Shown here: positions 7,496 to 64,000 of the stretch, one piece after another
How the letters are laid out: each line of letters begins with the position of its first letter
How positions within the stretch are numbered: the first letter of the stretch is position 1
Assembly (NCBI GenBank): GCA_949130485.1
Contig: OX422189.1
Coordinates: 9,455,992-9,519,991 of the forward strand
DNA length: 64,000 bases
Direction: 5' to 3'
Origin: Agelas oroides
Taxonomy: Eukaryota > Porifera > Demospongiae > Agelasida > Agelasidae
The notes under the pieces: model-generated
What the model saw: the letters and a program-made list of their open reading frames with translations, nothing else
Database searches by the model: none
What the model was told of the DNA's origin: nothing
Program-made: the position numbers and the translations under genes

Positions 7496-10400
7496 ATGGC
7501 TGCTCATTACACCAGCTATGAGCCACTGCCCAGATCTATCCATGCTACTGTTGCTATGGACAATAAGCTGCACATGTGGGGTGGGTTCACTGCGTCAAAG
7601 GAGAAGTCACGACAGGTAGCACGAAAAATTGAGGTGTTTGACATCTCCAAGGAACTATGGGAGCAGAAACCAACCCATGGCACCCCACCACCTGGACTGT
7701 GGGACACTGCGTACACAGTGGTGGGGTCATGTCTGTTTGTGTTTGGAGGGTCTGATGGTATGTCCCGTCACAACACCCTCTTCAAGCTTGACCTACGCAC
7801 CTTTCAGTGGGAGCAGGTGCAAGTATCAAACCCCTCCAGTGGCCCACAGAGGAAGGATGGCTGCGGGATGGTTTCCTATGGTGATAACCAGCTGGTGGTT
7901 TTTGGTGGGTCCATGGGTGTTGCTGAGTACACAGATGAACTGCATGTCTTTGACTTAGGCAAAGGTGAGTACAGTCTGTGTACCAAACCACAAGCCAAGC
8001 AATATTATACGGTTCATGCATATGGTGCAGTAAGGACGTTATGCCTGGAGTGACTGTTATCAGATTCTGAGTGGGTACAACCAAGGGAGCACTGACCACA
8101 AACTTGACTTGATGAGCCCTTGGTATAACAGTCCCTCCAGACTTTGGTGATGCCAGACAAGAAGGGTGGCAGCAACAACATGCTACTCACGATAAACGTA
8201 AACAGATTTGATTGTACACAAAGTGTACCTTGTGTTGGTTGCTAGTCTCATTGAGCACACTCTGTTAAGTTGTGTTGATTGATTTGCTTCAACTTGTTTT
8301 CCTTGATGAGAATGTTGAGTAGTCCATCTGAACAAGTCACCAAGCTGCAGATGGTTGGATTGTGCACACATGAACTATGGCCTGGGAATAAGACTAGTGG
8401 AAGATTAAAGTGTTCCAGATCTCTCTTAGCTGTATGTGTGGTTCATTGTCCAACTAATCAGTGCGCAATAATGTGGTTGTTGGAGGAAATCTCAATCTAC
8501 TACTTGTGTGCCATAGGACAACCTACACATGTTCTGACCTGTATTAGTGGTCATCTCCAGTTGAGACTCTCTTCACTATAATTATGTGTGAATCATTGTC
8601 CAACTAATCAGGTCACAATGCTGTATTGTCATGTTCCTCTCCACTGTTACAACAGGAGAGTGGTCATCTCCAGCTGTGACTGGCACAAAGCCGCCTCCTC
8701 TCTCCGCCTTCTCCTTCACCAAAGTTGACAGCAGGAGGGCTGTGGTGTATGGAGGGAGGACAGATGGAGGAACATCTGGTGATGCCTATATACTTGAGCT
8801 GGATAAGTGGGTGTGTGCAATATAGAATTGTGTAACATGTGACAATATGTTAATGACTAGCTTTGATTGGAAAGGAGCAATGATACTTGCAGTTGTTGAC
8901 ATGTAACTAGGCTGTGTTGTCATGAACCTTCACGTTCAACAATGGAGCTCTTTCATGTTAAAACCACTCTAAGTATGTGAGTCAATTTCGAATACCACTA
9001 GTGTACGGTGGGAGGACAGCTGGTTGTCAGTCAGTTATGTACATGAGCTGGATAAGTGTGTGAGTGTAACGGGTTGTGGACTAGTTTTGAAGTAGGTCAT
9101 TGGAAGGAAGCCACAATATTTGATTGTTGACATGATGTAACTAGGTTATGTTGTCATGACAGTACTTTCAACTTGTAACCTAATTAATGTTGGAAATTAG
9201 ATACTGCAGCATGTTTTATCACTCTAACAAGGTTGAGGATATACAAACTATCAGTTACTGTATGAAGGTGTAGTGTGTATGGTAGTGATTGTGAATTCTT
9301 CCTGTGCCTTTATACAGAAATGTTTCAGCATTTGTCGTTTCATCAATGTCATAGTTATGCTATGAATAAACGAGGAGCCTATATGTATTATGTACACTGC
9401 TTAGTCTTTCAATGATGACAGTTACCACCACCATATTTGGTATGATCATCAGTCACATGGAGCTGCAGTGCATTGTGTACATGACTGTGGGTCTTGACTT
9501 CCTCAGCACTGGACCAAACTGGACATCACTGGAGGTCCCAGGCCGTGTGCAAGGTCCAACCATGCTGCCTGTTGTATTGCTGGTCCCCTCACTGGACAGA
9601 AGCACCCACTACTGCTGGTGGGAGGTGGGCTCAGTGGAAGTATGTTCAGTCGAAGTGTACTCAAAGACATGTGGGTGTTGGATGTTGACAGAGGAGTGTG
9701 GAGTGAGGTTAGTGAGTTGATTTCTCTGGTGTATGATGAGTTGTATCAAGAGTGCATGTTATACATACGTACCATTGCTTACATACATGTGGCTGTGTGC
9801 CTTGAATCTCTTGTATAGCTAGCTACAGCAGCATGTACCCAGTGGATGTATATATCAAATGTACATAGACTCATAGTTATGGATTTATGCTGAGCACAGT
9901 TTGCATATCTGAACAGTGTGTGTTCCAATGTACTTGCAATACTAGTGTACACACTAACACAAGTATGTTATGTAACGGATGTTTCATCAGCTGCTATTGC
10001 CTCCTCCTGTACAGGTTACTCTTCCCCAAGAAATGGGACCACGACGTGACCACACTGCTACTGTGTTTGGGTCTGGACACAACTTCAGGATGGTGGTCAT
10101 GTTCGGTGGGATAAGGAGGCTTTTTGGAGACCTAATAGCTGAGACAACCCTCCTTCATCTTGGTGAGTGTGCAGTTTGGAACATAACATGATACATGAGC
10201 AGGAACATTGGTGAAGCTGGACTCGAGTATTAGACCACCATCTGTGCAAAGTGTGGAAAATTTTGTTTTACCACAGTTTTTTTGCTCTCAGGGAGCACTT
10301 AAAATTGGTTTATTTCAGCTATAAGATGAGAGCTGTGTGAGTATGAAAGTATAATTGTCGCTTTTAGCATTGTTTTAAGAAGTCAAGAAGTGTTTTTTAT

Positions 10401-12473
10401 TGCTCTTTGGCTATAAAATTAAAGCAAAAGGACAAAACGGAACTAAAATGTAACTCAGTAATATGCATGATAGAAGTTCTTCATAAACAGCTGGACCAAA
10501 AGGTGGTCCCGGTCAAAAGCAGACCAGCCAGAGTGGTGATGCCACCACTATACATTCACCACCCAGTCCTATCTGCAAAGGAGTTAACAAAATCGCAAAA
10601 GAGAATGTCAACTGGTTTGGCTAGAGTCTATGAAATGAATTACTTGTGTAGCGTAATCTCTTATACTCTGCCACAGGGTCATAGTGCATGACTGAGTGGT
10701 AAGGGTATCTGACTGGCACTCAGAATCAACTGGGAAGTGAAGTACATTGTACACTATATCAAATGATGTTTTCTGTTCCTTCCATTTCTTGGATATTTCA
10801 GCTGTCATGCCACCTTCTAGCTATGTCCATTTTGGGTTTGGTTAACATTGGTGCCCTAAGTTCAGATGCCGGCCTGTGTATTTCTCCTTCCTCCTCCCAC
10901 ACTTTCACACTTCTTTCCTTCGTCTCAGAGTGCCGCAGGGGTAGGTGGCAAGTAACAAGGGTTGTGACGAAGGGGGAGCTGGGGAAACCAGTAGAGAGGC
11001 TGAGGGAGCAGATGGAGAAGCTGCAGCTGCGTTCATCACACAGATCTGATGGGAAAGCAGGCATGTTGGAACAACAGCTGCCCGTGGCTGAGGAGAGCGT
11101 GAGGAGGTTGGAGGCAGAGAAACAGGCAGCTGAAACAAGAGCTGATATTGCAGAGAGAAGGGTAAATACTAGAGATGTCTGGAAGGAGACAAACTGGTCG
11201 GATCAGAGAGAAGAGCTCTCTACATTACTAAACCTGTTCTCACTACCCAATCTTCCTCACATTCATTCTACAGATTGCTGACCTACAGAGGAGAGCAGAA
11301 GAGGCAGAGAGGAGAGCCAGAGATGCAGAGAATACCACTACCGACCTCATAAGGCAGACCACTGATGCTAACCAGAGAATGAGGGAGACAGAGGCTAGAG
11401 CTTGGGAATCCACACAAACTGTCGCACAAGCTGAACAAAGAGCTGCACAATCTGACCAAAGGGCTACACAAGCTGAGCAAAGGGCCACACAAGCTGAGCA
11501 AAGGGCCACACAAGCTGAGCAAAGGGCCACACAAGCTGAGCAAAGGGCCACACAAGCTGAGCAAAGGGCTACACGAGCTGAGGCAGGAGCACATTTCTTG
11601 CAGCAGCAGAATGAAGAAATGGCAGTGAGGGTGAGACAAGCGGAGCAGACAGCAAGAGAGGCGCAGGAGAGAGCAAGGATGACTGAGCAGAGAGCCCAGA
11701 GACTGGAGGCAAGAAGTCATGATCAGTTCTGGGTAGTAAATAGAGAAGAGATCCAGCTAACCCACCAGGAGCTGGGCAGAGGTGGGTGGGCTGTAGTGAA
11801 AGTAGCCAAGTTCCGAGGCCTCCGAGTGGCAGCCAAGTGTCTGCATACCCTCATTGTCTCTGACTACAACCGACAGCTGTTTGTGAGGGAGATGAGTATT
11901 GCTGCCAGAGTGCGCCACCCCAACCTGGTGCAGTTCATTGGAGCTATGATGGAGGGAGAACCCATCATCCTGACAGAGCTGATGGCCACAAGCCTGAGGG
12001 CTGTCTTAGAGCGTAGGCCGTTCAACCCTGCTCAGATCACCTCCATCAGCCTGGATGTGGCCAGAGCCCTCAACTACCTCCACCTGATGCACCCTGACCC
12101 CATCATCCATCGAGACATCAGCAGTGCTAACGTCCTGCTGGAGCCTGCGCCCAGCAACAGCTGGAGGGCCAAAGTATCTGACTATGGCTCAGCCAACTTC
12201 CTCCAGCAGCTGAGAACAGCAGGTCCTGGAAACCCAACATATGCTGCCCCAGAAGCCGACATTCCCTCTCAGCAGTCACCAAAAATGGATGTCTACAGCT
12301 ACGGTGTTCTCCTGCTGGAGACGTGCAGTCGAAGGTTTCCCAATCCAGAAGAGTGTGAAGCCCTTCTCCAGCGAGTGCAGCAGCCAACCATGGTGGCACT
12401 GATCCGACAATGCATGGAACGAGAACCTACGAGAAGGCCGACAATGAGTGACATCATTGGACAGTTGGAGTGA
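7496..12473 (+). CDS. U2: six-exon Kelch-propeller / coiled-coil / TKL-like kinase, 801 aa
   Basis: Exons: 7496-7964, 8656-8810, 9507-9707, 10015-10162, 10929-11161, 11274-12473; intron phases 1,0,0,1,0. The spliced length is 2406 nt with no internal stop. The start is fixed by an in-frame TAA two codons upstream (TAA ACT ATG). Residues about 1-325 form six Kelch repeats (LHMWGG, LFVFGG, LVVFGG, AVVYGG, LLLVGGG, VVMFGG). A coiled coil of about 210 residues follows, with seven QRA[AT] heptads. The C-terminal kinase has its ATP lysine near 590, HRD near 681 and DYG near 705. The kinase ends in a TKL-like manner (DVYSYGVLLLE, RRPTMSDI). No signal peptide or membrane helix, so probably cytosolic. 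Function inferred: propeller binds a ligand, coiled coil oligomerises, kinase signals. Intron 4 (about 770 bp) holds no recognisable gene. Confidence 0.9.
11425..11582 (+). repeat. U2 21-bp heptad-coding repeat
   Basis: Same repeat with seven QRA[AT] cores, two more than the otherwise near-identical U1. The recent change therefore added or removed exactly 42 bp. Confidence 0.85.
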
Positions 12474-16803: not shown

Positions 16804-19800
16804 ATGGCTGCTCATCACACCAGCTATGAGCCACTGCCCAGATCTCAACATGCTGCTGTTGCTGTGGACAATAAGCTGCACATGTGGGGTGGGTTCACTG
16901 CGTCAAAGGAGAAGTCACGACAGGTAGCACGAAAAATTGAGGTGTTTGACATCTCCAAGGAACTATGGGAGCAGAAACCAACCCATGGCACCCCACCACC
17001 TGGACTGTGTGGCACTGCATACACAGTGGTGGGGTCATATCTGTTTGTGTTTGGAGGGTGGGATGGTGAGTCCGTTCACAACACCCTCTTCAAGCTTGAC
17101 CTACGTACCTTTCAGTGGGAGCAGGTGCAAGTATCAAACCCCTCCAGTGGACCACAGAGGAAGAGAGGCTGCAGTATGGTGTCCTATGGTGATAACCAGC
17201 TGGTGGTCTTTGGTGGACGGACGGGCAGTGCGAGGACAGACGAACTGCATGTCTTTGACTTAGACAAAGGTGAGTACAGTCTGTGTACCAAACCACAAGC
17301 CAAGCAATATTACGTGGTTCATGCATATGGTGCAGTAAGGACGTTTAGATGTTATGGTTGGAGTGACTGTTATCGGATTCTGAGTGGGTACAACCAAGGG
17401 CACATTGACCACAAACTCAACTCAATGAGCCCTTGGTATAACAGTCCCTCCAGACTTTGGTGATACCAGTCAAGAAGGGTGGCAGCAACAACATGCCACT
17501 CATGATAAACGTAAACAGATTTGATTGTACACAAAGTGTACCTTGTGTTGGTTGCTAGTCTCATTGAGCACACTCTGTTAAGTTGTGTTGATTGATTTGC
17601 TTCATGTCATACTACTTGTTTTCCTTGATGAGAATGTTGAGTAGTCCATCTGAACAAGTCACCAAGCTGCAGATGGTTGGATTGTGCACACATGAACTAT
17701 GGCCTGGGAATAAGACTAGTGGAAGATTAAAGTGTTCCGGATCCCTCTTAGCCATATGTGAGGTTCATTGTCCAACTAATCAGTGCACAATAATGTGGTT
17801 GTTGGAGGAAATCTCAATCAACTACTTGTGTGCCATAGGACAACCTACACATGTACTGACCTGTATTATTAACATTACACCATAAAACTTACCGCCATGT
17901 TGTGTATTGTATATTTGAAACTTCAGTGGTGTATGTTCCTCCATCCCCACTGCTTCAGGAGAGTGGTCATCTCCAGCTGAGACTCTCTTCACTATAATCA
18001 TGTGTGGATCAATGTCCAACTAATCAGTACACAATACTGTATTGTCATGTTCCTCTCCACTGTTCCAGGAGAGTGGTCATCTCCAGCTGTGACTGGGACA
18101 AAGCCGCCTCCTCTCTCCTGGTTCTCCTTCAACAAAGTAGACAGCAGGAGGGCTGTGGTGTGTGGAGGGTTCGCAGGTGGAGCAGTAAATGGTGATGCCT
18201 ATGTACTTGAGCTGGATAAGTGGGTGCGTGCAATATAGAATTGTGTAACATGTGACAATATGTTAATGACTAGCTTTGATTGGAAAGAAGCCACGATACT
18301 TGCAGTTGTTGAGATGTAACTAGGCTGTGTTGTCATGAACCTTCACGTTCAACAATGGAGCTCTTTCATGTTAAAACCACTCTAAGTATGTGAGTCAATT
18401 TTGAATACCACTAGTGTACGGTGGGAGGACAGCTGGTTGTCAGTCAGTTATGTACATGAGCTGGATAAGTGTGTGATTGTGTTGTGGACTAGTTTTGAAG
18501 TTGGCCATTGGAAGAAAGCCACAATATTTGATGACATGATGTAACTAGGTTATGTTGTCATGACAGTACTTTCAACTTGTAATCTAATTAGTTTTGGAAA
18601 TTAGATACTGCAACATGTTTTATCACTCTACAGGAGTTGAGGATATACAAACTATCAGTTACTGTATGAATGTGTACTGTGTATAGTAGTGATTGTGAAT
18701 TCATACTGTCATGCAGAAATGTTTCAGCATTTGTCGTTTGATCATTTGCAATCAATGTCATAGTTATATGTGCTATGAATAAACGAGGAGCCTATATGTA
18801 TTATGTACACTGCTTAGTCTTTCAATAATGACAGTTACCACATATTTAGTATGATCATCAGTCACATGGAGCTGCAGTGCATTGTGTACATGACTGTGGG
18901 TCTTGACTTCCTCAGCACTGGACCAAACTGGACACCACTGGAGGTCCCAGGCCACCTGCAAGGTATGACCATGCTGCCAGTTATATTGCTGGTCCCCTCA
19001 CTGGACAGGAGCACCCACTACTGCTGGTGGGAGGTGGATACGGTGATGGTGGTGAGCTGAAAGACATGTGGGTGTTGGATGTTGACAGAGGAGTGTGGAG
19101 TGAGGTTAGTGAGTTGATTCTCTGGTGTATGATGAGTTGCATCAAGAGTGCATGTTATACATATGTGCTGTTGCTTACATACATGTGGCTGTGTGCCTTG
19201 AATCTCTTGTATAGCTAGCTACAGTAGGATGTACCCAGTGGATGTATATACCAAATGTACATAGACTCATATTTATGGATTTATGCTAAGCATAGTTTGC
19301 ATACCTGAACAGTGTGTGTTCCAATGTACTTGCAATACTAGTGTACACACTAACACAAGTATGTTATGTAACGGATGTTTCATCAGTTGCTATTGCCTCC
19401 TCCTGTACAGGTTACTCTTCCTCATGGAATGGGACCACGATGTGGCCACACTGCTACTGTGTTTGGGTCTGGACACAACTTCAGGATGGTGGTCATGTTT
19501 GGTGGGGAGAGGAGGATTGGGGGAGACCCAATAGCCGAGACAACCCTCCTCCATCTTGGTGAGTGTGCAGTTTGGAACATAACATGTTACATGAGGAGGA
19601 GCATTCCCTTCGGCAAAGTGTCCACATCAGGGGCACCCCCAGCCACTTGAAGGTGGTCAGACCACCAGAGTAATAATCCTTGTGAAGTATGTTTTTTAGT
19701 GCTGTTCAGCTAAGACAAGAGCAGTACAAGTATAGAAGAATGACTGAAAGTGAACTGAGTAATGATAGAGAATTGTGTATGTAAGAGCTGATCAATTACA

Positions 19801-22147
19801 CACATTAATTGTAAAGATTTTGCTTCAGTTACCACTGTATTCAGCAGTCAGGAAATGTTCTCCTAGCATCTTAGTGTACCTTATTGCTTTTTAGTTATGA
19901 GACCGGAGCTATGAAACGAAAGTAGCTAACCCTCTCTAATGTAACTGATTCTACACGTGATAGTCATAAACCTGAACCAGCCAGACTAAAACCACCACTG
20001 TATACATTCACCCACCCAGTTCCACAGCCCCCATCTGCAAGGAAGCTAACAAAATCATGAGAGAGAAATATCAACTGGTTCCTGAATTGATTGTGTATAT
20101 CCTACGTAATGATTCATACTCTGCCATGGGGTCATAGTGCATGACTGAGTGGTAGGGGTATCTGACTGGCACTCAGAATCAACTCCCAGTTGAACATTTT
20201 TCTCTCTGAGAAGTGAAGTCCATTGTACATGACACTATCAAACAATGCTCTCTTACGTTGTTTCCATTCAGTATTCCATCTGTCATAAATTATTACCATC
20301 TAGCTGTGTCAGTGTTTAGTAGCCAATACAATTCAGATTCCTGTCTTTGTATTTCCATTTCAAGAGTGAGAGTCAGTTGAAATTCAGCTGAGGCCTCTTG
20401 GCATTGCTGCTAATGTAGCTTGTCTTCCGCTCCTCTGCCGTGGGTCCAAGTGGCTCAGTGGTAAGCGCATCTGACTAGTATTCAGAAGGTCTTGGGTGCG
20501 AATCCCAGCTGGATCCCGGAATTTTTCACATGGATTTATTTCTCACTCTCTCAGCAAAAACATCATAATCTTTCTCATGTTTTCTACTTTGATGTACCAA
20601 CAATGAATCTCTTGCAACTCTCCTTCCTCCTCCCACACTTTGTCACTCCTTTCCTCCATCTCAGAGTGCGGCAGGGTCAGGTGGCAGGTGACAAGGGTGG
20701 TGACAAAGGGGGAGCTGGGGAGACCAGCGGAGAGGCTGAGGGAGCAGATGGAGAAGCTGCAGCTGCATTCAGCAAAGGTGGTCATGTTGGAGCAACAGCT
20801 GGCCATGGCTGAGGAGAGGGTGAGGAGACTGGAGACAGAGAAACAGGCAGCTGAAACAAGAGCTGAAATAAGAGCTGAGAGAAGGGTGAGTTGTACAGAA
20901 TGCTGGAAGAGGATGGAGGGAGAGAAACAGATCAGAACTGACAGAAGAGCTCTTCAACCTGTTCCCACTACCTAATCTTCCTCACATTCATTCTGCAGAT
21001 TGCTGACCTACAGAGGAGAGCAGAAGAGGCAGAGAGGAGAGCCAGAGATGCAGAGAATACCACTACCGACCTCATAAGGCAGACCACTGATGCTAACCAG
21101 AGAATGAGGGAGGCAGAGGCCAGGGCTCAACAGTATCATCGAGAATCCACACAAACTGTCGCACAAGCTGAACAAAGAGCTGCACAATCTGACCAAAGGG
21201 CCACACAAGCTGAGCAAAGGGCCACACAAGCTGAGCAAAGGGCCACACAAGCTGAGGCAGGAGCACGTTTCTTGCAGCAGCAGAATGAAGAAATGGCAGT
21301 GAGGGTGAGACAAGCGGAGCAGACAGCAAGAGAGGCACAGGAGAGAGCAAGGACAACTGAGCAGAGACCCCAGAGACTGGAGGCAAGAAGTCATGATCAG
21401 TTCTGGGTAGTAAATAGAGAAGAGATCCAGCTAACCGACCAGGAACTGGGCAGAGGTGGATGGGCTGTAGTGAAAGTAGCCAAGTTCCGAGGCCTCCGAG
21501 TGGCAGCCAAGTGTCTGCATACCCTCATTGTCTCTGACTACAACCGACAGCTGTTTGTGAGGGAGATGAGTATTGCTGCTAGAGTGCGCCACCCCAACCT
21601 GGTGCAGTTCATTGGTGCCATGATGGAGGGAGAACCTATCATCCTGACAGAGCTGATGTCCACAAGCCTGAGGGCTGTCTTAGAGCGCAGGCCATTCAAC
21701 CCTGCTCAGATCACCTCCATCAGCCTGGATGTGGCCAGAGCCCTCAACTATCTCCACCTGATGCAACCTGACCCTATCATCCACCGTGACATCAGTAGCG
21801 CAAATGTCCTGCTGGAGCCAGGGCCCAGCAACAGCTGGAGGGCCAAAGTATCCGACTATGGCTCAGCCAACTTCCTCCAGCAACTGAGAACAGCTGGTCC
21901 TGGCAACCCGACATATGCTGCCCCAGAAGCTGGCATTCCCTCTCAGCAGTCACCACAAATGGATGTCTACAGCTATGGTGTTCTCCTGCTGGAGACGTGC
22001 AGTCGAAGGTTTCCCAATCCTGAAGAGTGTGAAGCCCTTCTCCAGCGAGTGCAGCAGCCAACCATGGTGGCACTGATCCAACAATGCATGGAACGAGAAC
22101 CTATGAGAAGGCCTACAATGAGTGACATCATTGGACAGTTGGAGTGA
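16804..22147 (+). CDS. U3: six-exon Kelch-propeller / coiled-coil / TKL-like kinase, 775 aa
   Basis: Exons: 16804-17269, 18069-18223, 18916-19104, 19411-19558, 20665-20885, 20999-22147; 2328 nt, open throughout. In-frame TAA two codons before ATG. Blades: residues 1-155 (blades 1-3), 156-207 (4), 208-270 (5), 271-320 (6). Coiled coil about 321-535 with four QRA[AT] heptads. Kinase about 536-775: ELGRGG at 542-547, lysine 564, helix-C glutamate 582, HRD 655-657, DYG 679-681, APE 701-703. The Lys normally found two residues after HRD Asp is Ser (HRDISSAN). Loop residues differ from the other copies (GGWDGESVH, GGRTGSAR, GGFAGGAVN). Exons 5-6 and intron 4 are nearly identical to those of U6. Intron 4 is about 1.1 kb and holds a tRNA-like sequence. 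The kinase ends CMEREPMRRP, a small change from CMEREPTRRP elsewhere. Confidence 0.9.
20443..20516 (+). tRNA. tRNA-Thr(AGT)-like sequence in U3 intron 4
   Basis: A 74-nt cloverleaf can be drawn: acceptor GGTCCAA with CTGGATC, D arm around GGCTCAGTGGTAAGCGC, anticodon arm TCTGA-CTAGTAT-TCAGA (anticodon AGT), variable AGGTC, T arm TTGGG-TGCGAAT-CCCAG. Three nt instead of two lie before the D stem, and the D and T arms carry changes from consensus. It may be a tRNA-derived SINE head or a decayed tRNA gene. Confidence 0.45.
21162..21256 (+). repeat. U3 21-bp heptad-coding repeat
   Basis: Four QRA[AT] cores; ends in QAEAGARF rather than RAEAGAHF as in U1, U2 and U4. Confidence 0.8.
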
Positions 22148-24084: not shown

Positions 24085-24330
24085 GGTATCCTGAATGAGA
24101 AGCCAACTCTATATGGCCTCATGGAGAAGGTCGCAGTTGATATCCCAGCCAAATGGGAGGAGGTGGGCTATGCCCTTGGGACTACAAGACCATATACAGC
24201 GTATCAAGTATGAAATTACTCCATTACTTATCCCAATGACAGCATATCGAGAGATGTTTGCCCACTGGCTAAAGAATGAAGAGTGCAGTTTTGAGATCAG
24301 TAAATCAAGAGGAAGATGGACCACTAGTTG
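24085..24330 (+). pseudogene. Death-domain exon relic, U3-U4 spacer
   Basis: After an acceptor-like TTATAG, one frame reads NEKPTLYGLMEKVAVDIP and AKWEEVGYALG; after a frameshift another reads IQRIKYEITPLLIPMTAYRE and MFAHWLKNEE. The W-E-x-V/L-G and Y-x-E-M-F-x-x-W-L pattern is that of a Death domain. The frameshift lies near 24185. Confidence 0.6.
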
Positions 24331-24545
24331 AGATCAGTAAATCAAGAGGAAGATGGACCACCAGTTGAGATCAGTAAATCAAGAGGAAGATGGACCACCA
24401 GTTGAGATCAGTAAATCAAGAGGAAGATGGACCACCAGTTGAGATCAGTAAATCAAGAGGAAGATAGACCACCAGTTGAGATCAGTAAATCAAGAGGAAG
24501 ATAGACCACCAGTTGAGATCAGTAAATCAAGAGGAAGATAGACCG
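24294..24545. repeat. 37-bp tandem repeat, about 7 copies
   Basis: Unit begins AGATCAGTAAATCAAGAGGA; starts at 24294, 24331, 24368, 24405, 24442, 24479 and 24516. It arises from the sequence just after the Death-domain relic, which is single copy at 45735. Confidence 0.9.
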
Positions 24546-24824: not shown

Positions 24825-25459
24825 TGTACACCAATCAAGCAATCAATAATAGTAATAACCAGCATATCCTAGCTTCACACATGTACACCAATCAAGCAAT
24901 CAACAATAGCAACAACCACCATATCCTAGCTTCACACATGTACACCAATCAAGCAATCAATAATAGCAACAACCACCATATCCTAGCTTCACACATGTAC
25001 ACCAATCAAGCAATCAACAACCACCATACCCTAGCTTCACACATGTACACCAATCAAGCAATCAACAACCACCATATCCTAGCTTCACACATGTACACCA
25101 ATCAAGCAATCAACAACCACCATATCCTAGCTTCACACATGTACACCAATCAAGCAATCAATAATAGCAACAACCACCATATCCTAGCTTCACACATGTA
25201 CACCAATCAAGCAATCAACAACCACCATATCCTAGCTTCACACATGTACACCAATCAAGCAATCAATAATAGCAACAACCACCATATCCTAGCTTCACAC
25301 AATCATGTACACCAATCAAGCAATCAACAACCACCATATCCTAGTTTCACACATGTACACCAATCAAGCAATCAACAACCACCATATCCTAGCTTCACAC
25401 ATGTACACCAATCAAGCAATCAATAATAGCAACAACAACCATATCCTAGCTTCACACAT
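24825..25459. repeat. 48/57-bp minisatellite, about 12 copies
   Basis: Units start TGTACACCAATCAAGCAATC and end CCTAGCTTCACACA. They are 48 bp, or 57 bp with an extra AATAGCAAC-type insert, both multiples of three. One 4-nt insertion near 25301 breaks the frame. Confidence 0.9.
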
Positions 25460-25464
25460 GTATA

Positions 25465-45223: not shown

Positions 45224-45524
45224 CTGAAAATCCTAGTAAACGGACTTGTAAGGTGCTCCGCCCATGGGCGCTCTTTTGTGAGACTACGGTGGATGTAAAT
45301 TTTGACCTCAGGGTGGTAGAATGGGGAAGGAGGCTACAGCAGCCCCCATCCAACTCCAAATCTCCTATTAAAGCAATATGACTGTGGATGAGAGACATCA
45401 ACTCATGTTACTGCACCCCTCCCCCTCCCCCTCCCCCTCCCCCCATCACAGAAAACAAAAACAGTGTGTAAAGAGTTAATAAACAAATTGTGTCTGTAAT
45501 GTGTTCTGATTGTATGAACTGTTA

Positions 45525-50037: not shown

Positions 50038-53000
50038 ATGGCTGCTCATTACACCAGCTATGAGCCACTGCCCAGAGATGACCATGCTGCTGTTGCTATG
50101 GACAATAAGCTGCACATGTGGGGTGGGTTCACTGCGTCAAAGGAGAAGTCACGACAGGTAGCACGAAAAATTGAGGTGTTTGACATCTGCAAGGAGCTAT
50201 GGGAGCAGAAACCGACCCATGGCACCCCACCACCTGGACTGTGGGGCACTGCATACACAGTGGTGGGGTCGTGTTTGTTTGTGTTTGGAGGGTGGGATGG
50301 TGAGTCCGTTCACAACACCCTCTTCAAGCTTGACCTACGCACCTTTCAGTGGGAGGAGGTGCAAGTATCAAACCCCTCCAGTGGCCCACAGAGGAAGAAT
50401 GGCTGCGAGATGGTTTCCTATGGTGATAACCTGCTGGTGGTCTTTGCTGGGTGGACGGGCAGTGCGAGGACAGATGAACTGCATGTCTTTGACTTAGACG
50501 AAGGTGAGTACAGTCTGTATACCAAACCACAAGCCAAGCAATATTATATGGTTCATGTGGTGCAGTAAGGAAGTTATATCTGGAGTGACTGTTGTACTCA
50601 CTCAGATTCTGAGTGGGTATAACCAAGGGAGCACTGACCACAAACTCGACTCGATGAGCCCTTGCTATAACAGTCCCTCCAGACTTTGGTGATACCAGTC
50701 AAGAAGGGTGGCAGCAACAACATGCCACTCATGATAAACGTAAACAGATTTGATTGCACACAAAGTGTACCTTGTGTTGGTTGCTAGTCTCATTGAGCAC
50801 ACTCTGTTAAGTTGTGTTGATTGATTTGCTTCATGTCATACTACTTGTTGTCCTTGATGAGAATGTTGAGTAGTCCATCTGAACAAGTCACCAAGCTGCA
50901 GATGGTTGGATTGTGCACACATGAACTATGGCCTGGGAATAAGACTAGTGGCAGATTAAAGTGTTCCGGATCCCTCTTAGCTGTATGTGTGGTTCATTGT
51001 CCAACTAATCAGTACATAATAATGTGGTTGTTGGAGGAAATCTCAATCAACTACTTGTGTGCCATAGGACAACCTACACATGTTCTGACCTGTATTAGTG
51101 GTCATCTCCAGTTGAGACTCTCTTCACTATAATTATGTGTGAATCATTGTCCAACTAATCAGGTCACAATACTGTATTGTCATGTTCCTCTCCACTGTTA
51201 CAGGAGAGTGGTCATCTCCAGCTGAGACTGGGACAAAGCCTCCTCCTCTCTCCTGGTTCTCCTTCACCAAAGTTGACAGCAGGAGGGCTGTGGTGTATGG
51301 AGGGAGGACAGATGGAGGAACATCTGGTGATGCCTATGTACTTGAGCTGGATAAGTGGGTGCGTGCAATATAGAATTGTGTAACATGTGACAATATGTTA
51401 ATGACTAGCTTTGATTGGAAAGGAGCCATGATACTTGCAGTTGTTGACATGTAACTAGGCTGTGTTGTCATGAACCTTCACGTTCAACAATGGAGCTCTT
51501 TCATGTTAAAACCACTCTAAGTATGTGAGTCAATTTTGAATACCACTAGTGTACGGTGGGAGGACAGCTGGTTGTCAGTCAGTTATGTACATGAGCTGGA
51601 TAAGTGTGTGAGTGTAATGTGTTGTGGACTAGTTTTGAAGTAGGCCATTGGAAGGAAGCCACAATATTTGATTGTTGACATGATGTAACTAGGTTATGTT
51701 GTCATGACAGTACTTTCAACTTGTAATCTAATTAATGTTGGAAATTAGATACTGCAGCATGTTTTATCACTCTAACAATGTTGAGGATATACAAACTATT
51801 AGTTACTGTATGAAGGTGTACTGTGTATAGTAGTGGTTGTGAAGTTATCCTGTCAGAGTGCAGAGTGCTGTGAAGTTATCCTGGCAGAGTGCCACTTATA
51901 CAGAAATGTTTCAGCATTTGATCCTTTGATCATTTGTGATCAATGTCATTGTTATGCTATGAATAAATGAGCAGCCTATATGTATTATGTACACTGCTTA
52001 GTCTTTCAATGACGATAGTTACCACCACCATATTTGGTATGATCATCAGTCACATGGAGCTGCAGTGCATTGTGTACATGACTGTGGGTCTTGACTTCCT
52101 CAGCACTGGACCAAACTGAACACCACTGGAGGTCCCAGGCCACCTGCAAGGGACTCCCATGCTGCATCCTGTATTGCTGGTCCCCTCACTGGACAGGAGC
52201 ACCCACTACTGCTGGTGGGAGGTGGACACGGTGATGGTGTACTCAAAGACATGTGGGTGTTGGATGTTGACAGAGGAGTGTGGAGTGAGGTTAGTGAGTT
52301 GATTTCTCTGGTGTATGATGAGTTGCATCAAGAGTGCATGTTATACGTATGTGCTTACATACATGTGGCTGTGTGCCTTGAATCTCTTGTATAGCTAGCT
52401 ACAGTAGGATGTACCCAGTGGATGTATATACCAAATGTACATAGACTCATGTTTATGGATTTATGCTAACATAGTTTGTATACCTGAACAGTGTGTGTTC
52501 CAATGTACTTGCAATACTAGTGTACACACTAACACAAGTATGTTATGTAACGGATGTTTCACCAGTTGCTATTGCCTCCTCCTGTACAGGTTACTCTTCC
52601 TCAAGGAATGGGACCACGATATCGGCACACTGCTACTGTGTTTGGGTCTGGACCAAACTTCAGGATGGTGGTCATGTTTGGTGGGAGGAGGAGGATTGGG
52701 GGAGACCCAATAGCTGAGACAACCCTCCTCCATCTTGGTGAATGTGCAGTTTGGAACATAACATGTTACATGAGGAGGAGCATTCCCTTCGGCAAAGTGT
52801 CCACATCAGGGGCACCACCAGCCACTTGAAGGTGGTCAGACCACTAGAGTAATAATCCTTGTGAAGTATGTTTTTTAGTGCTGTTCAGCTAAGACAAGAG
52901 CAGTACAAGTATAGAAGAATGAATGAATGTGAACTGAGTAATGATAGAGAATTGTGTATGTAAGAGCTGATCAATTGCACACATTAATTGTAAAGATTTT

Positions 53001-55356
53001 GCTTCAGTTAGCACTGTATTCAGCAGTCAGGAAATGTTCTCCTAGCATCTTAGTGTACCTTATTGCTTTTTAGTTATGAGACCGGAGCTATGAAACGAAA
53101 GTAGCTAACCCTCTCTAATGTAACTGATTCTACACGTGATAGTCATAAACCTGAACCAGCCAGACTAAAACCACCACTGTATACATTCACCCACCCAGTT
53201 CCACAGCCCCCATCTGCAAGGAAGCTAACAAAATCATGAGAGAGAAATATCAACTGGTTCCTGAATTGATTGTGCATATCCTACGTAATGATTCATACTC
53301 TGCCACAGGGTCATAGTGCATGACTGAGTGGTAGGGGTATCCGACTGGCACTCAGAATCAACTGACTGGCACTCAGAATCAACTCCGAGCTGAACACCTA
53401 AACATTTTTCTCTCTGAAAAGTGAAGTCCATTGCATATGGCACTATCAAAACAATGTTCTCTTACGATGTTTCCATTCAGTATTCCAGCTGTCATAAATT
53501 ATTACCATCTAGCTGTGTCAGTGTTTAGTAGCCTATACAATTCAGATTCCTGTCTGTGTATTTCCATTTCAAGAGTGAGAGTCAGTTGAAATTCAGCTGA
53601 GGCCTCTTGGCATTGCTGCTAATGTAGCTTGTCTTCCGCTCCTCTGCCGTGGGTCCAAGTGGCTCAGTGGTAAGCGCATCTGACTAGTATTCAGAAGGTC
53701 TTGGGTGCGAATCCCAGCTGGATCCCGGAATTTTTCACATGGATTTATTTCTCACTCTCTCAGCAAAAACATCATAATCTTTCTCATGTTTTCTACTTTG
53801 ATGTACCAACAATGAATCTCTTGCAACTCTCCCTCCTCCTCCCACACTTTCTCACTCCTTTCCTCCATCTCAGAGTGTGGCAGGGTCAGGTGGCAGGTGA
53901 CAAGGGTGGTGACAAAGGGGGAGCTGGGGAGACCAGCGGAGAGGCTGAGGGAGCAGATGGAGAAGCTGCAGCTGCATTCAGCAAAGGTGGTCATGTTGGA
54001 GCAACAGCTGGCCATGGCTGAGGAGAGGGTGAGGAGACTGGAGACAGAGAAACAGGCAGCTGAAACAAGAGCTGAAATAAGAGCTGAGAGAAGGGTGAGT
54101 TGTACAGAATGCTGGAAGAGGATGGAGGGAGAGAAACAGATCAGAACTGACAGAAGAGCTCTTCAACCTGTTCCCACTACCTAATCTTCCTCACATTCAT
54201 TCTGCAGATTGCTGACCTACAGAGGAGAGCAGAAGAGGCAGAGAGGAGAGCCAGAGATGCAGAGAATACCACTACCGACCTCATAAGGCAGACCACTGAT
54301 GCTAACCAGAGAATGAGGGAGGCAGAGGCCAGGGCTCAACAGTATCATCGAGAATCCACACAAACTGTCGCACAAGCTGAACAAAGAGCTGCACAATCTG
54401 AGCAAAGGGCCACACAAGCTGAGCAAAGGGCCACACAAGCTGAGCAAAGGGCCACACAAGCTGAGGCAGGAGCACGTTTCTTGCAGCAGCAGAATGAAGA
54501 AATGGCAGTGAGGGTGAGACAAGCGGAGCAGACAGCAAGAGAGGCACAGGAGAGAGCAAGGACAACTGAGCAGAGACCCCAGAGACTGGAGGCAAGAAGT
54601 CATGATCAGTTCTGGGTAGTAAATAGAGAAGAGATCCAGCTAACCGACCAGGAACTGGGCAGAGGTGGATGGGCTGTAGTGAAAGTAGCCAAGTTCCGAG
54701 GCCTCCGAGTGGCAGCCAAGTGTCTGCATACCCTCATTGTCTCTGACTACAACCGACAGCTGTTTGTGAGGGAGATGAGTATTGCTGCTAGAGTGCGCCA
54801 CCCCAACCTGGTGCAGTTCATTGGTGCCATGATGGAGGGAGAACCTATCATCCTGACAGAGCTGATGTCCACAAGCCTGAGGGCTGTCTTAGAGCGCAGG
54901 CCATTCAACCCTGCTCAGATCACCTCCATCAGCCTGGATGTGGCCAGAGCCCTCAACTATCTCCACCTGATGCAACCTGACCCTATCATCCACCGTGACA
55001 TCAGTAGCGCAAATGTCCTGCTGGAGCCAGGGCCCAGCAACAGCTGGAGGGCCAAAGTCTCCGACTATGGCTCAGCCAACTTCCTCCAGCAACTGAGAAC
55101 AGCTGGTCCTGGCAACCCGACATATGCTGCCCCAGAAGCTGGCATTCCCTCTCAGCAGTCACCACAAATGGATGTCTACAGCTATGGTGTTCTCCTGCTG
55201 GAGACGTGCAGTCGAAGGTTTCCCAATCCTGAAGAGTGTGAAGCCCTTCTCCAGCGAGTGCAGCAGCCAACCATGGTGGCACTGATCCGACAATGCATGG
55301 AACAAGAACCTATGAGAAGGCCGACAATGAGTGACATCATCGGACAGTTGGAGTGA
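50038..55356 (+). CDS. U6: six-exon Kelch-propeller / coiled-coil / TKL-like kinase, 774 aa
   Basis: Exons: 50038-50503, 51204-51358, 52104-52289, 52590-52737, 53874-54094, 54208-55356; 2325 nt, open. In-frame TAA two codons before ATG. Exon 1 has RDDH at the first variable pair and shares FTASKEKSRQV with U2 and U3 and GESVH with U3. Exon 2 shares RTDGGTSG with U2. From intron 3 onward it is almost the same as U3, including the RIGGD loop of blade 6 and four QRA[AT] heptads. The kinase is complete (HRDISSAN, DYG, APE); the C-terminus has CMEQEPMRRP. The intron 4 donor is GTGAAT rather than GTGAGT. Intron 4 carries a tRNA-like sequence and a small 21-bp duplication (GACTGGCACTCAGAATCAACT) at about 53344-53385. 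Confidence 0.9.
53652..53725 (+). tRNA. tRNA-Thr(AGT)-like sequence in U6 intron 4
   Basis: Same sequence as the U3 copy, including GCGC in the D arm and TGCGAAT in the T loop, in line with the close U3-U6 relationship. Confidence 0.45.
54371..54465 (+). repeat. U6 21-bp heptad-coding repeat
   Basis: Four cores as in U3, but the second unit is SEQRAT where U3 has SDQRAT. Confidence 0.8.
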
Positions 55357-55739: not shown

Positions 55740-56018
55740 TGAAAACTGGGGAGGAGCCTGGCCATGTCCCTGGCATCACTGCTGGAGGGTGATCCCATTC
55801 CCCTCGTTGTCAAGCAATCACTGCTTGCAGATGTGGCACGTGGATTGCAATTCCTCCACACCTGTATTCACCTGCACACCTTCATTGTACACAAGAGATC
55901 TAACTGCCCAGAATGTTCTTCTAAATTCATCTCAAGTTGCCAAAATCAGTGACTTTGGTAGCTAGCTGCTGCATCATGAAACTGCAGCAAATGACCAAGC
56001 TCACTCAAATGCCTGGTT
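55740..56018 (+). pseudogene. Tyrosine-kinase relic, truncated, U6-U7 spacer
   Basis: Third copy, cut after AATGCCTGGTT, where it runs into minisatellite sequence (CAACAACCACCATATCC). The missing APE region and downstream 1.8 kb indicate a deletion. Confidence 0.6.
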
Positions 56019-56019
56019 C

Positions 56020-56208
56020 AACAACCACCATATCCTAGCTTCACACCCAATCAAGCAATCAATAATAGCAACAACCACCATATCTTATATATCTTCACAC
56101 ATGTACACCAATCAAGCAATCAACAACCACCATATCCTAGCTTCACACATGTACACCAATCAAGCAATCAATAATAGCAACAACCACCATATCCTAGCTT
56201 CACACATG
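56020..56208. repeat. 48/57-bp minisatellite, about 4 partial or complete copies
   Basis: Same repeat as at 24825, with internal rearrangement (ATCTTATATATCTTCACAC) and a direct junction with the kinase relic. Confidence 0.85.
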
Positions 56209-56385
56209 TATATCCGGAATGAGAAGCCAGCTCTATATGACCTCATGGAGAAGGTTGCAGCTGAGATTCCAGCCAAATGGGAGGAGGTGGGCTATGCCCT
56301 TGGAATTACAAGACCATCCATGCAGCGTAACCCAATGACAGCGTATCGGGAGATGTTTGGTGTTTACCCACTGGCTACAGAATGA
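56101..56385 (+). CDS. Open frame joining minisatellite to Death-domain segment, 94 aa, truncated
   Basis: Two minisatellite units read in frame into RNEKPALYDLMEKVAAEIP, AKWEEVGYALGITRP and MTAYREMF, then stop after GVYPLATE. The normal FTHWL end of the Death domain is lost because a 49-bp repeat begins there. Probably a relic. Confidence 0.25.
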   Translation: MYTNQAINNHHILASHMYTNQAINNSNNHHILASHMYIRNEKPALYDLMEKVAAEIPAKWEEVGYALGITRPSMQRNPMTAYREMFGVYPLATE

Positions 56386-56703
56386 AACTGAGCAGCAGTG
56401 CACATGCAGTGTTTACCCACTGGCTACAGAATGAAACTGAGCAGCAGTGCACATGCAGTGTTTACCCACTGGCTACAGAATGAAACTGAGCAGCAGTGCA
56501 CATGCAGTGTTTACCCACTGGCTACAGAATGAAACTGAGCAGCAGTGCACATGCAGTGTTTACCCACTGTCTACAGAATGAAACTGAGCAGCAGTGCACA
56601 TGCAGTGTTTACCCACTGGCTACACAATGAAACTGAGCAGCAGTGCACATGCAGTGTTTACCCACTGGCTACAGAATGAAACTGAGCAGCAGTGCACATG
56701 GAG
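56361..56703. repeat. 49-bp tandem repeat, 7 copies
   Basis: Unit begins TGTTTACCCACTGGCTACAG and ends CAGTGCACATGCAG; starts at 56361, 56410, 56459, 56508, 56557, 56606 and 56655. Derived from the end of the Death-domain segment (THWLQNETEQQ region at 25610); 49 is not a multiple of three, so it destroys the frame. Confidence 0.9.
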
Positions 56704-56944
56704 TGCAGTGTTGCGACCACTTGCCAGTAAACAAGTGGAAGATAGACTGCTAGCTGCAAAAATTAGAAAATAATTAACTTTTACAACAATGTGATTGTTC
56801 TGTTCAGAAGAATATAGCACATGATTGTTGCACCAGTACCATGATATGTACTGTACACAACCCTGCAATGAATAACACACATATGAACACACACACACAA
56901 ATGCAGTGGACCTACTATAGATCAAAATTGCAATCATCTAGTGC

Positions 56945-58335: not shown

Positions 58336-58338
58336 GTT

Positions 58339-58661: not shown

Positions 58662-58680
58662 GCTAACGTTCTGCTGTTAA

Positions 58681-61362: not shown

Positions 61363-64000
61363 ATGGCTGCTCGTCACACCAGCTATGAACCACTGCCCAG
61401 AGCTGGACATGCTGCTGTTGCTGTGGACAATAAGCTGCACATGTGGGGTGGGTGGGCTGCGTCAAAGGAGAAGTCACGACAGGTACCACGAAATATTGAG
61501 GTGTTTGACATCTCCAAGGAGCTATGGGAGCAGAAACCAACCCATGGCACCCCACCACCTGGACTGTTCAACACTGCATACACAGTGGTGGGGTCGTGTC
61601 TGTTTGTGTTTGGAGGGTGGGATGGTGGTAGGTCCCGCCACAACACCCTCTTCAAGCTTGACCTACGTAACTTTCAGTGGGAGCGGGTGCAAGTATCAAA
61701 CCCCTCTAGTGGCCCACAGAGGAAGAGAGGCTGCAGGATGGTTTCCTATGGTGATAACCAGCTGGTGGTTTTTGCTGGGTCCATGGGTTTTGCTGAGTAC
61801 ACAGATGAACTGCATGTCTTTGACTTAGACAAAGGTGAGTACAGTCTGTGTACCAAACCATAAGCCAAGCAATATTATATGGTTCATGTGGTGCAGTAAG
61901 GAAGTTTAGATGTTATGTCTGGAGTGACTGTTATCTGATTCTGAGTGGGTACAACCAAGGGCGCATTGACCACAAACTCGACTCGATGAGCCCTTGGTAT
62001 AACAGTCCTCCAGACTTTGGTGATGCCAGACAAGAAGGGTGGCAGCAACAACATGCCACTCACGATAAACGTAAACAGATTTGATTGTACACAAAGTGTA
62101 CCTTGTGTTGGTTGCTAGTCTCATTGAGCATACTCTGTTAAGTTGTTTTGATTGATTTGCTTCATGTCATACTACTTGTTTTCCTTGATGAGAATGTTGA
62201 GTAGTCCATCTGAACAAGTCACCAAGCTGCAGATGGTTGGATTGTGCACGCATGAACTATGGCCTGGGAATAAGACTAGTGGAAGATTAAAGTGTTCTGG
62301 ATCCCTCTTAGCTGTATGTGTGGTTCATTGTCTAACTAATCAGTGCACAATAATGTTGTTGTTGGAGGAAATCTCAATCTACTGCTTGTGTGCCACAACC
62401 TGCACATGTACTGACCTGTATTAGTGGTCATCAGTAGTGTGTATTGTACTTCAGTGGTGTATGTTCCTCGGTCCCCACTGCTTCAGGAGAGTGGTCATCT
62501 CCAGCTGTGTGACTCTCTTCACTATAATTATGTGTGGATCGTCGTCATTGTCCAACTAATCAGTACACAATATTCTACTGTCATGCATGTTCCTCTCCAC
62601 TGTTACAGGAGAGTGGTCATCTCCAGCTGTGACTGGCACAAAGCCTCCTCCTCTCACCAGCTTCTCCTTCACCAAAGTTGACAGCAGGAGGGCTGTGGTG
62701 TATGGAGGGGGTGCAGGTTTGAAGGCGTATGGTGATGCCTATGTACTTGAGCTGGATAAGTGGGTGAGTGCAATATAGAATTGTGTAACATGTAATTATG
62801 TGACAATATGTTTATGACTAGCTTTGATTGGAAAGAAGCCACAATACTTGTAGTTGTTGACATGTAACTAGACTATGTTGTCATGAACCTTCACATTCAA
62901 CAATGTAGCTCTTTCATGTTAAAACCACTCTAAGTATGTGAGTCAATTTTGAATACAACTAGTGTACTGTGGGAGGACAGCTGGTTGTCAGTTAGTTATG
63001 TACATGAGCTGGATAAGTGTGTGAGTGTAACGTGTTGTGGACTAGTTTTGAAGTAGGCCATTGGAAGGAAGCCACAATATTTGATTGTTGACATGATGTA
63101 ACTAGGTTATGTTGTCATGCCAGTACTTTCAATATATAACTAAATTTAATTTGGGAAATTGGATACTGCAGCATGTTTTATCACTCTAACAGGAGTTGAG
63201 GATATACAAACTGTCAGTTACTGTATGAAGGTTTACTGTGTATAGTAGTGATTGTGAAGTTATCCTGTCAGAGTGCCACTTATACAGAAATGTTTCAGCT
63301 TTTGCCGTTTGTGATCAATGTCATAGTTATGCTATCAATAAACGAGTCTATATGTATTATGTACACTGCTTAGTCTTTCAAAGATGACAGTTACCACCAC
63401 CATATTTGGTATGATCATCAGTCACATGGAGCTGCAGTGCATTGTGTACATAACTGTGGGTCTTGACTTCCTCAGCACTGGACCAAACTGGACACCACTG
63501 GAGGTTCCAGGTCACTTGCAAGGTTCGGCCATGCTACATGTTGTATAGCTGGTCCCCTCACTGGGCAGGAGCACCCACTGCTGCTGGTGGGAGGTGGTCT
63601 CAGTGGTGGTGTGTTCAGTCGAAGTGTACTCAAAGACATGTGGGTGTTGGATGTTGACAGAGGAGTGTGGAGTGAGGTTAGTGAGTTGATTTCTCTGGTG
63701 TATGATGAGTTGCATCAAGAGTGCATGTTATACGTACGTACCGTTGCTGTTGCTTACATACATGTGGCTGTGTGCCTTGTGACTCTTGTATAGCTAGCTA
63801 CAGTGTACCCAGTGGATGTACCACCCGTACATAGACTCATGTTTATGGATTTATGCTAACATAGTTTGTATACCTGAACAGTGTGTGTTCCAATGTACTT
63901 GCAATACTAGTGTACACACTAACACAAGTATGTTATGTAACGGATGTTTCACCAGTTGCTATTGCCTCCTCCTGTACAGGTTACTCTTCCCCAAGAAATG
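61363..64000 (+). CDS. U7: Kelch-coiled coil-kinase gene, 3' truncated by window (exons 1-4 start)
   Basis: Visible exons: 61363-61834, 62609-62763, 63476-63676 and the first 21 nt of exon 4 from 63980. Phases and splice sites match the family. In-frame TAA two codons before ATG. Exon 1 is two codons longer than the usual 466 nt because the blade 2 loop (GGWDGGRSRH) and the blade 3 loop (AGSMGFAEYTDE) each have one extra residue. U2 shares the blade 3 variant (SMGVAEY). Exon 2 has a GAGLKAYG loop like U4's AAGLERYG. The exon 2 donor is the consensus GTGAGT, which supports the same junction in copies with GTGCGT or GTGTGT. Coiled coil and kinase presumably lie beyond the window. Confidence 0.85.

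What the first reader, a model, noticed from the sequence alone, without database searches (positions are those of the whole stretch)
7496..63676. Kelch variation is confined to ligand-face positions while the framework is nearly invariant
In U3 numbering, differences between copies fall at residues 14-15, 31-44, 69-70, 86, 89-91, 121 and 124, 139-144, 172-173, 190-196, 224-225, 249-254, 281-282 and 303-308. These are the same two places in each of six blades: the pair before the conserved H/A position, and the loop after GG. Examples: RSIH/RSQH/RAGH/RDDH; GLWDTA/GLCGTA/GLSATA/GLFNTA; QRKDGCG/QRKRGCS/QRKTGCG/QRKNGCE; PRRDH/PRCGH/PWYEH/PRFRH/PRYRH. Between them, stretches such as THGTPPPGL and NTLFKLDLR are identical in all copies. 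In Keap1 the ligand-contacting residues lie at corresponding places. This looks like a recognition repertoire under diversifying selection, in the style of immune or allorecognition receptors.
Basis: partly seen in the sequence, partly recalled or inferred. Interest (0 to 1): 0.92.

Follow-up and report, generated by a model that had tools for sequence, protein, structure and literature searches.

The report
Hypervariable Kelch-kinase gene array
An early-branching animal, probably a sponge, carries a tandem array of some eighteen near-identical genes for a signalling enzyme whose propeller-shaped binding domain has been driven to change mainly on its presumed ligand-binding face, the mark of a recognition repertoire such as those used to tell friend from foe.

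Summary
The window is part of an array (18 close copies at C7:9.21-9.55 Mb, 2 on C6) of genes encoding Kelch propeller, coiled coil and TKL-type kinase; six are open over six exons (770-808 aa), and 19 of 20 close copies are open through the Kelch exons. With site classes set by Kelch-repeat grammar, the d-a pair plus b-c loop have omega 2.1, 6.0, 3.3 and 2.5 in exons 1-4 (own trees) against 0.40-0.55 elsewhere. Opposite-face turns have dN/dS 0.32, the kinase 0.13. Copies recombine, but simulation does not explain the signal. A second gene group (16 copies) points to nearly the same sites, although its face as a whole has omega 0.97. These positions bind Nrf2 in Keap1 and the C-degron in KLHDC2. 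A hydropathy scan shows no transmembrane stretch, so the sensor is probably intracellular. Closest analogue: fungal HNWD proteins, selected in the same two propeller loops. Ligand and immune or allorecognition role are inferred.

The parts
256..3180 (+). Gene U1, 3' part (e3 256-456, e4 764-911, e5 1678-1910, e6 2023-3180); e1-e2 lie left of the window at C7:9454233
   Evidence: open frame of 787 aa with e1-e2 from L002
7496..12473 (+). Gene U2, complete: e1 7496-7964, e2 8656-8810, e3 9507-9707, e4 10015-10162 (Kelch propeller), e5 10929-11161 and e6 11274-12473 (coiled coil and kinase); 801 aa
   Evidence: five introns, each GT-AG; Pfam
16804..22147 (+). Gene U3: e1 16804-17269, e2 18069-18223, e3 18916-19104, e4 19411-19558, e5 20665-20885, e6 20999-22147; 775 aa
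28703..34182 (+). Gene U4: e1 28703-29168, e2 29944-30098, e3 30797-30982, e4 31285-31432, e5 ends 32807 (acceptor uncertain, 32566 or 32599), e6 32920-34182; 819 or 808 aa
38215..43573 (+). Gene U5: e1 38215-38680, e2 39376-39530, e3 40203-40418, e4 40829-40976, e5 42134-42354, e6 42467-43573; 770 aa
50038..55356 (+). Gene U6: e1 50038-50503, e2 51204-51358, e3 52104-52289, e4 52590-52737, e5 53874-54094, e6 54208-55356; 774 aa
61363..63676 (+). Gene U7, 5' part: e1 61363-61834, e2 62609-62763, e3 63476-63676; the rest lies right of the window (e4 read from L037)
7535..7540 (+). Example of a hypervariable d-a pair: codons 14-15 of U2 (blade A; same offset from GG as Keap1 S363-G364 and N414-R415)
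7586..7624 (+). Example of a hypervariable b-c loop: codons 31-43 of U2 (blade A, after GG; the model has a short helix at 35-42)
11745..12470 (+). Kinase domain of U2 with the catalytic motifs present; dN/dS 0.13 among six window copies (251 aa examined, starting nine residues earlier)
   Evidence: motifs read by eye

Best explanation
A germline-encoded, intracellular recognition repertoire. Each gene makes a six-bladed Kelch propeller whose d-a/b-c face binds a protein or peptide ligand. A heptad-repeat coiled coil should oligomerise the protein, and a TKL-type (TAK1/CTR1-like) kinase signals. Duplication, recombination between copies and point mutation supply variants; positive selection keeps changing the binding face while most of the framework, the opposite face and the kinase stay conserved. 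Shown here: architecture, open frames (six exons in six genes, Kelch exons in 19 of 20 close copies), omega above 1 on the face, a conserved kinase, recombination among copies, recurrence of the selected positions in a second gene group. Inferred: ligand binding by this face, activation by oligomerisation, kinase activity, intracellular site, and non-self (microbial or allogeneic) ligands.
For: Omega of face 2.11/5.96/3.33/2.55 in e1/e2/e3/e4 on separate trees, rest 0.45/0.46/0.55/0.40; 2dlnL against face omega=1: 29.5/59.3/32.0/19.4. M8a-M8 2dlnL 93/81/50/41. Opposite-face AB+CD turns dN/dS 0.32. In the same six genes: kinase 0.13 with dS 0.107, Kelch rest 0.38 with dS 0.102, face dN 0.31 with dS 0.205. 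Nine disjoint pairs of copies: face nonsynonymous:synonymous codons 118:22, rest 105:82. Second gene group: M8 omega 3.55, 2dlnL 54.6, seven columns above 0.9 at 31, 70, 86, 91, 121 and two in the insertion after 139. Homologues on other public contigs: Spearman 0.63 of site diversity over 156 sites, 38 of 49 used. Keap1-type offsets (30 of 324 positions) hold 16 of 28 selected sites. Top fold matches are KLHDC10, KLHDC2, LZTR1 and KLHDC3. Null simulations for exon 1 with four spliced trees: largest of 25 is 20.4, observed 87.7.
Against: No ligand, expression, phosphorylation or population data. Six of 28 selected sites lie outside the face classes, two of them in opposite-face turns. The four closest pairs of copies show little of the effect (face 11:3, rest 23:16 codons). 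In the second group the whole face has omega 0.97, and no recombination control was run there. Face four-fold sites are also raised (0.18 against 0.09), as are those within three codons of hot codons (0.112 against 0.087), so part of the excess may be older divergence or local mutation. No kinase match is listed near the two C6 copies. Selection between paralogues can also follow from endogenous partners.
Confidence: 0.67

Rival explanations
1. Functional specialisation to different endogenous partners: each copy acquired a different cellular client (development, gamete or cell-type signalling), with positive selection during divergence but no non-self recognition.
For: The closest Kelch domains (KLHDC2/3/10, LZTR1, Keap1) read endogenous proteins. 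Selection between paralogues cannot by itself tell the two apart, and the four closest pairs of copies changed little on the face (11:3 codons).
Against: Many different residues at the same few positions in 19 copies, in a second gene group and in homologues on other contigs, with face residues passed between copies, are more than stable client specialisation needs.
Confidence: 0.21
2. Localised hypermutation or a dedicated diversification mechanism acting on face codons, with selection secondary.
For: Face four-fold sites are raised (0.18 against 0.09), and four-fold sites within three codons of hot codons slightly so (0.112 against 0.087).
Against: Codon positions 1-2 rise far more than neutral sites. 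Four-fold sites inside pair codons are at background (0.086, 373 comparisons, counted only where the first two bases agree). Omega is above 1.
Confidence: 0.05
3. Relaxed constraint: the face lost its function after duplication and drifts.
For: High variability and some indels in b-c loops.
Against: Omega above 1 in four of four exons; face positions 1-2 differ about 3-5 times as much as introns and about twice as much as the 700 bp upstream; Kelch frames open in 19 of 20 close copies.
Confidence: 0.03
4. Artefact of assembly, alignment or recombination between copies.
For: Recombination is detected (PHI p=0.001 on exons, 0.003 on intron 1) and can inflate site-model tests: null 2dlnL reached 20.4.
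Against: Observed 87.7 for exon 1 is far beyond the 25 null values. Tree-free pairs agree in total. Copies differ by 6-8% in introns and have individual intron lengths. The second group and other contigs agree on positions.
Confidence: 0.04

Closest known systems
Fungal HNWD (HET-D/HET-E/HET-R) allorecognition NLRs of Podospora anserina (PMC1805685: abstract, outline and section 10 seen; PMC2873952: passages seen)
   Same: Gene family with a beta-propeller sensor; exchange between members; positive selection on two pairs of residues per repeat, one in the d-to-a loop and one in the b-c turn, at the interaction face: the same two loops as here.
   Different: WD40, not Kelch; HET and NACHT domains (recalled) instead of coiled coil and kinase; a fungus, not an animal; repeats exchange within the propeller there, whereas here whole genes repeat in tandem and each blade keeps its own sequence.
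KLHDC2/KLHDC3/KLHDC10 Kelch C-degron receptors (PMC11568203 and PMC12169847: passages seen)
   Same: KLHDC2 is the closest solved Kelch domain by sequence and KLHDC10/KLHDC2 by fold of exon 1. The KLHDC2 anchors R236 and R241 and the serine of its blade-4 R-S-R trio align to residues 191, 196 and 225 here (alignment, placed by spacing; the number S269 is recalled).
   Different: Those anchor positions are hypervariable here, and a kinase follows the propeller.
BTB-Kelch proteins (Keap1)
   Same: Selected sites are concentrated at Keap1's ligand-contact offsets.
   Different: No BTB or BACK domain at E up to 0.001 in Pfam; kinase fusion; diversifying tandem family.
Plant and animal NLR/LRR repertoires, including sponge NLRs (Dysidea avara, PMC12909245: passages seen)
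   Same: Expanded multigene families with a recognition domain and a signalling domain (recalled for plants).
   Different: No NACHT or LRR domain at E up to 0.001 here; the sensor is a Kelch propeller with a kinase in the same chain.

Membership tests
TKL-group protein kinase | Kinase fold with catalytic lysine, HRD and DFG-type motifs | tested here: met
   PF00069 and PF07714; AAK, HRDISSAN, DYG and APE read by eye in the sequence; best solved relatives CTR1 and TAK1. Activity not tested.
Kelch six-bladed propeller | Six repeats with GG at the end of strand b | tested here: met
   PF24681; six blade-type GG motifs read in the sequence; AlphaFold of exon 1 shows the strands of three blades. 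The whole propeller was not folded.
HNWD fungal NLR | WD40 sensor with NACHT and HET domains | tested here: not met
   Pfam on the 801-aa protein at E up to 0.001 lists Kelch/beta-propeller families, kinase and a sub-cut-off tropomyosin match only
HNWD-like mode of evolution | Positive selection in d-a and b-c loops of a propeller plus exchange between copies | tested here: met
   compared with PMC1805685 section 10
KLHDC C-degron receptor | Conserved R/F-S-R C-terminus anchor | tested here: not met
   Aligned residues 191, 196 and 225 have 9, 7 and 6 different amino acids among 19 copies. BC-box not tested.
BTB-Kelch (KLHL) | BTB and BACK domains N-terminal to Kelch | tested here: not met
   The Kelch match starts at residue 8 and no BTB is listed; an in-frame TAA lies two codons upstream of the ATG
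NLR receptor | NACHT or NB-ARC domain | tested here: not met
Immune or allorecognition receptor | Binds a non-self ligand and triggers a response | not testable with these tools
   Needs ligand, expression and population data

The most novel reading that the evidence does not exclude
An early-branching animal has a large NLR-independent intracellular non-self recognition system: at least two groups of single-chain Kelch-kinase sensors that reached the same solution as fungal HNWD proteins, diversifying the d-a/b-c face of a propeller while exchanging segments between tandem copies, and that could serve microbial or allogeneic recognition.
Probability: 0.5. Interest if true: 0.93.

Novelty: new variant of a known kind. 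Interest (0 to 1): 0.83.

Why it matters
How animals without adaptive immunity, sponges above all, tell microbes and other individuals apart is open. A kinase-coupled Kelch repertoire with a mapped hypervariable face would give candidate receptors, name the residues to test, and suggest that propellers in animals and fungi were independently turned into diversifying sensors through the same loops.

Tried and rejected
Relaxed constraint, hypermutation and recombination artefact were tested and judged unlikely. NG86 counts gave a face dN/dS of only 1.28, because dS inside face codons is also raised; the codon likelihood models with a shared synonymous rate are the better measure. The strict pair definition failed in blade C: the a priori pair 122-123 is nearly invariant and the variable sites are 121 and 124; it was kept strict in the counts. 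The class scheme agrees with the AlphaFold strands in blades A and B, but in blade C the model continues strands b and c (132-141, 144-153) through most of what I class as loop 139-147. Second gene group: pair plus b-c set omega 0.97, b-c alone 0.90, pair 1.60. The four closest pairs of copies show little excess on the face (11:3 against 23:16 codons). The kinase does not look like a pseudokinase (motifs intact). The host could not be named: mitochondrial COX1 read with table 4 is 88% identical to Anemonia and 87% to Trichoplax in a length-limited search, so a sponge is likely but a cnidarian is not excluded; Dysidea avara (575 Mb) does not fit the 259-Mb assembly. Literature searches listed no paper on a Kelch-kinase repertoire in sponges; only top listings of open-licence PMC texts were seen. 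One of the 25 null fits gave a negative 2dlnL (-3.5), that is, an imperfect optimisation. Rows dropped: C7_9435166 (frameshift in e3) from the site tests; the partial copy C7:9238090 was not modelled; the distant C7_5104967 was left out of ingroup tests; L026, L027 and L029 (L029 is the same place as L048) left out of the second-group test; 11 of 49 homologues of 70% identity or less left out of the Spearman test. Insertion columns were put in the face set.
Full report
WHAT IS THERE. The window is G000:C7:9455992-9519991 of a 259-Mb assembly in 141 contigs. It holds six Kelch first exons (7496, 16804, 28703, 38215, 50038, 61363) and six kinase last exons (ending 3180, 12473, 22147, 34182, 43573, 55356), spaced 9-12 kb apart. 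U2 is a clean six-exon gene with five GT-AG introns: 801 aa, Kelch propeller from exons 1-4, coiled coil and kinase from exons 5-6 (Pfam). Each of the six genes whose kinase exon lies in the window (U1-U6; the first two exons of U1 lie just left of it and were read from L002) gives an open six-exon frame of 770-808 aa; only the exon-5 acceptor of U4 is uncertain. In the assembly, 83 of 115 scored candidates match exon 1 at E up to 0.001, and 20 are close (78-100% identical): 18 at C7:9.21-9.55 Mb and 2 on C6. For the kinase, 150 of 473 candidates were scored and 20 are 94-100% identical. By position, each of the 18 array copies has such a kinase exon 3.7-5.6 kb downstream of its start; none is listed near the two C6 copies.

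INTACTNESS. Exons 1-4 were built for 21 copies, the 20 close ones and one distant. 19 of the 20 close copies are open across the Kelch exons, with GT-AG splice sites at the same places; one (C7:9435166) has a frameshift in exon 3. A partial copy (C7:9238090) was not modelled. Exons 5-6 were checked only for the six window genes.

SITE CLASSES. To avoid circularity, residues were classed by Kelch grammar (distance from GG and from the strand-d tryptophan) and not by variability: d-a pair (12 residues), b-c loop (63), a-b turn (27), c-d turn (25), strands and linker. Blades D-F have longer a-b turns, so their pairs were placed by motif and by the KLHDC2 alignment. Exon 1, folded with 66 sequences, gave pLDDT 92.3 and pTM 0.87. 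Its strands lie where the grammar places them in blades A and B; in blade C strands b and c run on through most of the 'loop' 139-147. The best fold matches are KLHDC10, KLHDC2, LZTR1 and KLHDC3.

SELECTION. Counting (NG86, 19 copies) gives dN/dS 1.82 for pairs, 1.17 for b-c loops, 0.32 for the two opposite-face turns together and 0.43 for all non-face sites. Synonymous change inside face codons is itself raised, so outside yardsticks are better: introns 1-3 differ at 6-8% (pooled p-distance), framework four-fold sites at 9%, the 700 bp upstream at 13%; face codons differ at 26% and 30% in positions 1 and 2, pair codons at 36% and 41%. In a two-class codon model with a shared synonymous rate, fitted per exon on its own tree, omega of face/rest is 2.11/0.45, 5.96/0.46, 3.33/0.55 and 2.55/0.40, and omega(face)=1 is rejected each time (2dlnL 29.5, 59.3, 32.0, 19.4). 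The likelihood code reproduces IQ-TREE (-2442.89 against -2442.93 for exon 1). M8 against M8a: 2dlnL 93.2, 81.0, 50.1, 41.1. 28 sites have posterior above 0.95, 22 of them among the 75 face positions (Fisher p 9e-11). The six exceptions are 121 and 285 (next to a pair), 222 and 281 (three and five residues before one), 101 (c-d turn) and 297 (a-b turn).

CONTROLS. PHI detects recombination in exons (p=0.001) and intron 1 (p=0.003), not in intron 3 (p=0.69); intron 2 had only 6 informative sites. In 25 null data sets for exon 1, with four different trees spliced together and no positive selection, 2dlnL (M1a-M2a) reached at most 20.4; the observed value is 87.7. Nine disjoint pairs of copies, which need no tree, give face nonsynonymous:synonymous 118:22 and rest 105:82 codons (Fisher p 5e-8). 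Most of this comes from the five more distant pairs; the four closest give 11:3 and 23:16. Four-fold sites within three codons of hot codons differ at 0.112 against 0.087 farther away, a slight rise that local hypermutation or linked older divergence would predict, but too small to account for the face. In the same six genes the kinase has dN/dS 0.13 (dS 0.107), the rest of the Kelch domain 0.38 (dS 0.102), and the face dN 0.31 with dS 0.205.

REPLICATION. A second gene group (15 copies on C7 at 8.33-9.09 Mb and one on C1; exon 1 about 40% identical to the first) shows a similar picture: M8 omega 3.55, 2dlnL 54.6 against M8a; the seven columns above 0.9 correspond to 31, 70, 86, 91, 121 and two in the insertion after 139. 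Against this, the whole face set there has omega 0.97, the b-c loop 0.90, and only the pair exceeds 1 (1.60, 2dlnL 5.2); recombination was not controlled there. For 8 of these 16 exons a kinase match lies 3-6 kb downstream. Of 49 homologous exon-1 proteins on other public contigs (species not named), the 38 above 70% identity vary at the same sites (Spearman 0.63 over 156 sites); several report the same longest-contig length, which suggests arrays there too.

LIGAND FACE. Twenty residues of Keap1 named in the binding context in PMC6891428 (abstract and passages) were placed on the Keap1 sequence: 18 fall by offset in the pair (GG-15/-14) or at GG+1, +3 or +6, and S602/G603 by motif. Those offsets define 30 positions here, which hold 16 of the 28 selected sites and 14 of the 19 above 0.99. 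KLHDC2's degron anchors R236 and R241 (PMC12169847) and the serine of its blade-4 R-S-R trio (PMC11568203) align to residues 191, 196 and 225, all among the most variable.

SOURCE OF VARIANTS. U1 and U2 are identical in exons 2-4, yet differ at 11 codons of exon 1, five of them on the face (31-33, 69-70); each face variant is shared with other copies. That is the pattern of short-tract exchange moving face residues between genes. Other variants are private.

HOW IT PROBABLY WORKS. Inference: the ligand is gripped on the d-a/b-c face; the heptad coiled coil (21-bp units, 3.5 to 11 copies by gene) brings kinases together; the kinase (closest solved: CTR1 and TAK1) passes the signal on. The highest 19-residue hydropathy of U2 is 1.12 and the N-terminus is not hydrophobic, so I infer an intracellular sensor; no dedicated signal-peptide or membrane predictor was run.

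COMPARISON. The nearest analogue in mode is the fungal HNWD family, in which four codons per WD40 repeat are under positive selection, one pair in the d-a loop and one in the b-c turn (PMC1805685 section 10). This is not a member: no WD40, NACHT or HET domain is listed. KLHDC and KLHL membership fail on the conserved anchor and the BTB domain. In one sponge transcriptome study two Kelch-motif genes are listed among those changing after microbial stimuli (PMC6208332, passages); whether they are relatives is unknown.

HOST. Mitochondrial COX1 reads with table 4 and is split by about 1.2 kb; the nearest named proteins are Anemonia (88%) and Trichoplax (87%). I take the host to be an early-branching animal, most likely a sponge; that is inference.

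VERDICT.

Noticed in passing
window 20443-20517, 32325-32399, 53652-53726 (and 41902-41975): tRNA-Thr (AGT) genes lie in the intron between exons 4 and 5 of U3, U4 and U6; Rfam alone also finds a tRNA in that intron of U5, and neither tool lists one in U1 or U2.
   Followed up: no
window 2174-2289, 11425-11582, 21162-21256, 33061-33291, 42609-42682, 54371-54465: A 21-bp minisatellite encodes one coiled-coil heptad per unit and ranges from 3.5 to 11 copies by gene, so coil length differs between copies.
   Followed up: partly
window 24291-24544, 24825-25462, 46062-46302, 56018-56210, 56360-56705: Several minisatellites (37-57 bp units) between genes.
   Followed up: no
window 44585-45232 (-): 215-aa open frame on the minus strand without a Pfam match, possibly a mobile-element fragment.
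   Followed up: no
L063 (G000:C107:16176-16808): A second COX1 fragment without stops on another contig, possibly a bacterial contig in the assembly.
   Followed up: no
C7_9212518- and C7_9227811- (L013, L015): Two inverted copies carry a 12-column insertion in exon 2 just before the GG loop of blade D.
   Followed up: no
G000:C6:4876816-4877340 and 4937629-4938153 (L019, L018): Two intact Kelch copies on another chromosome without a kinase match listed nearby; they may be Kelch-only genes.
   Followed up: no
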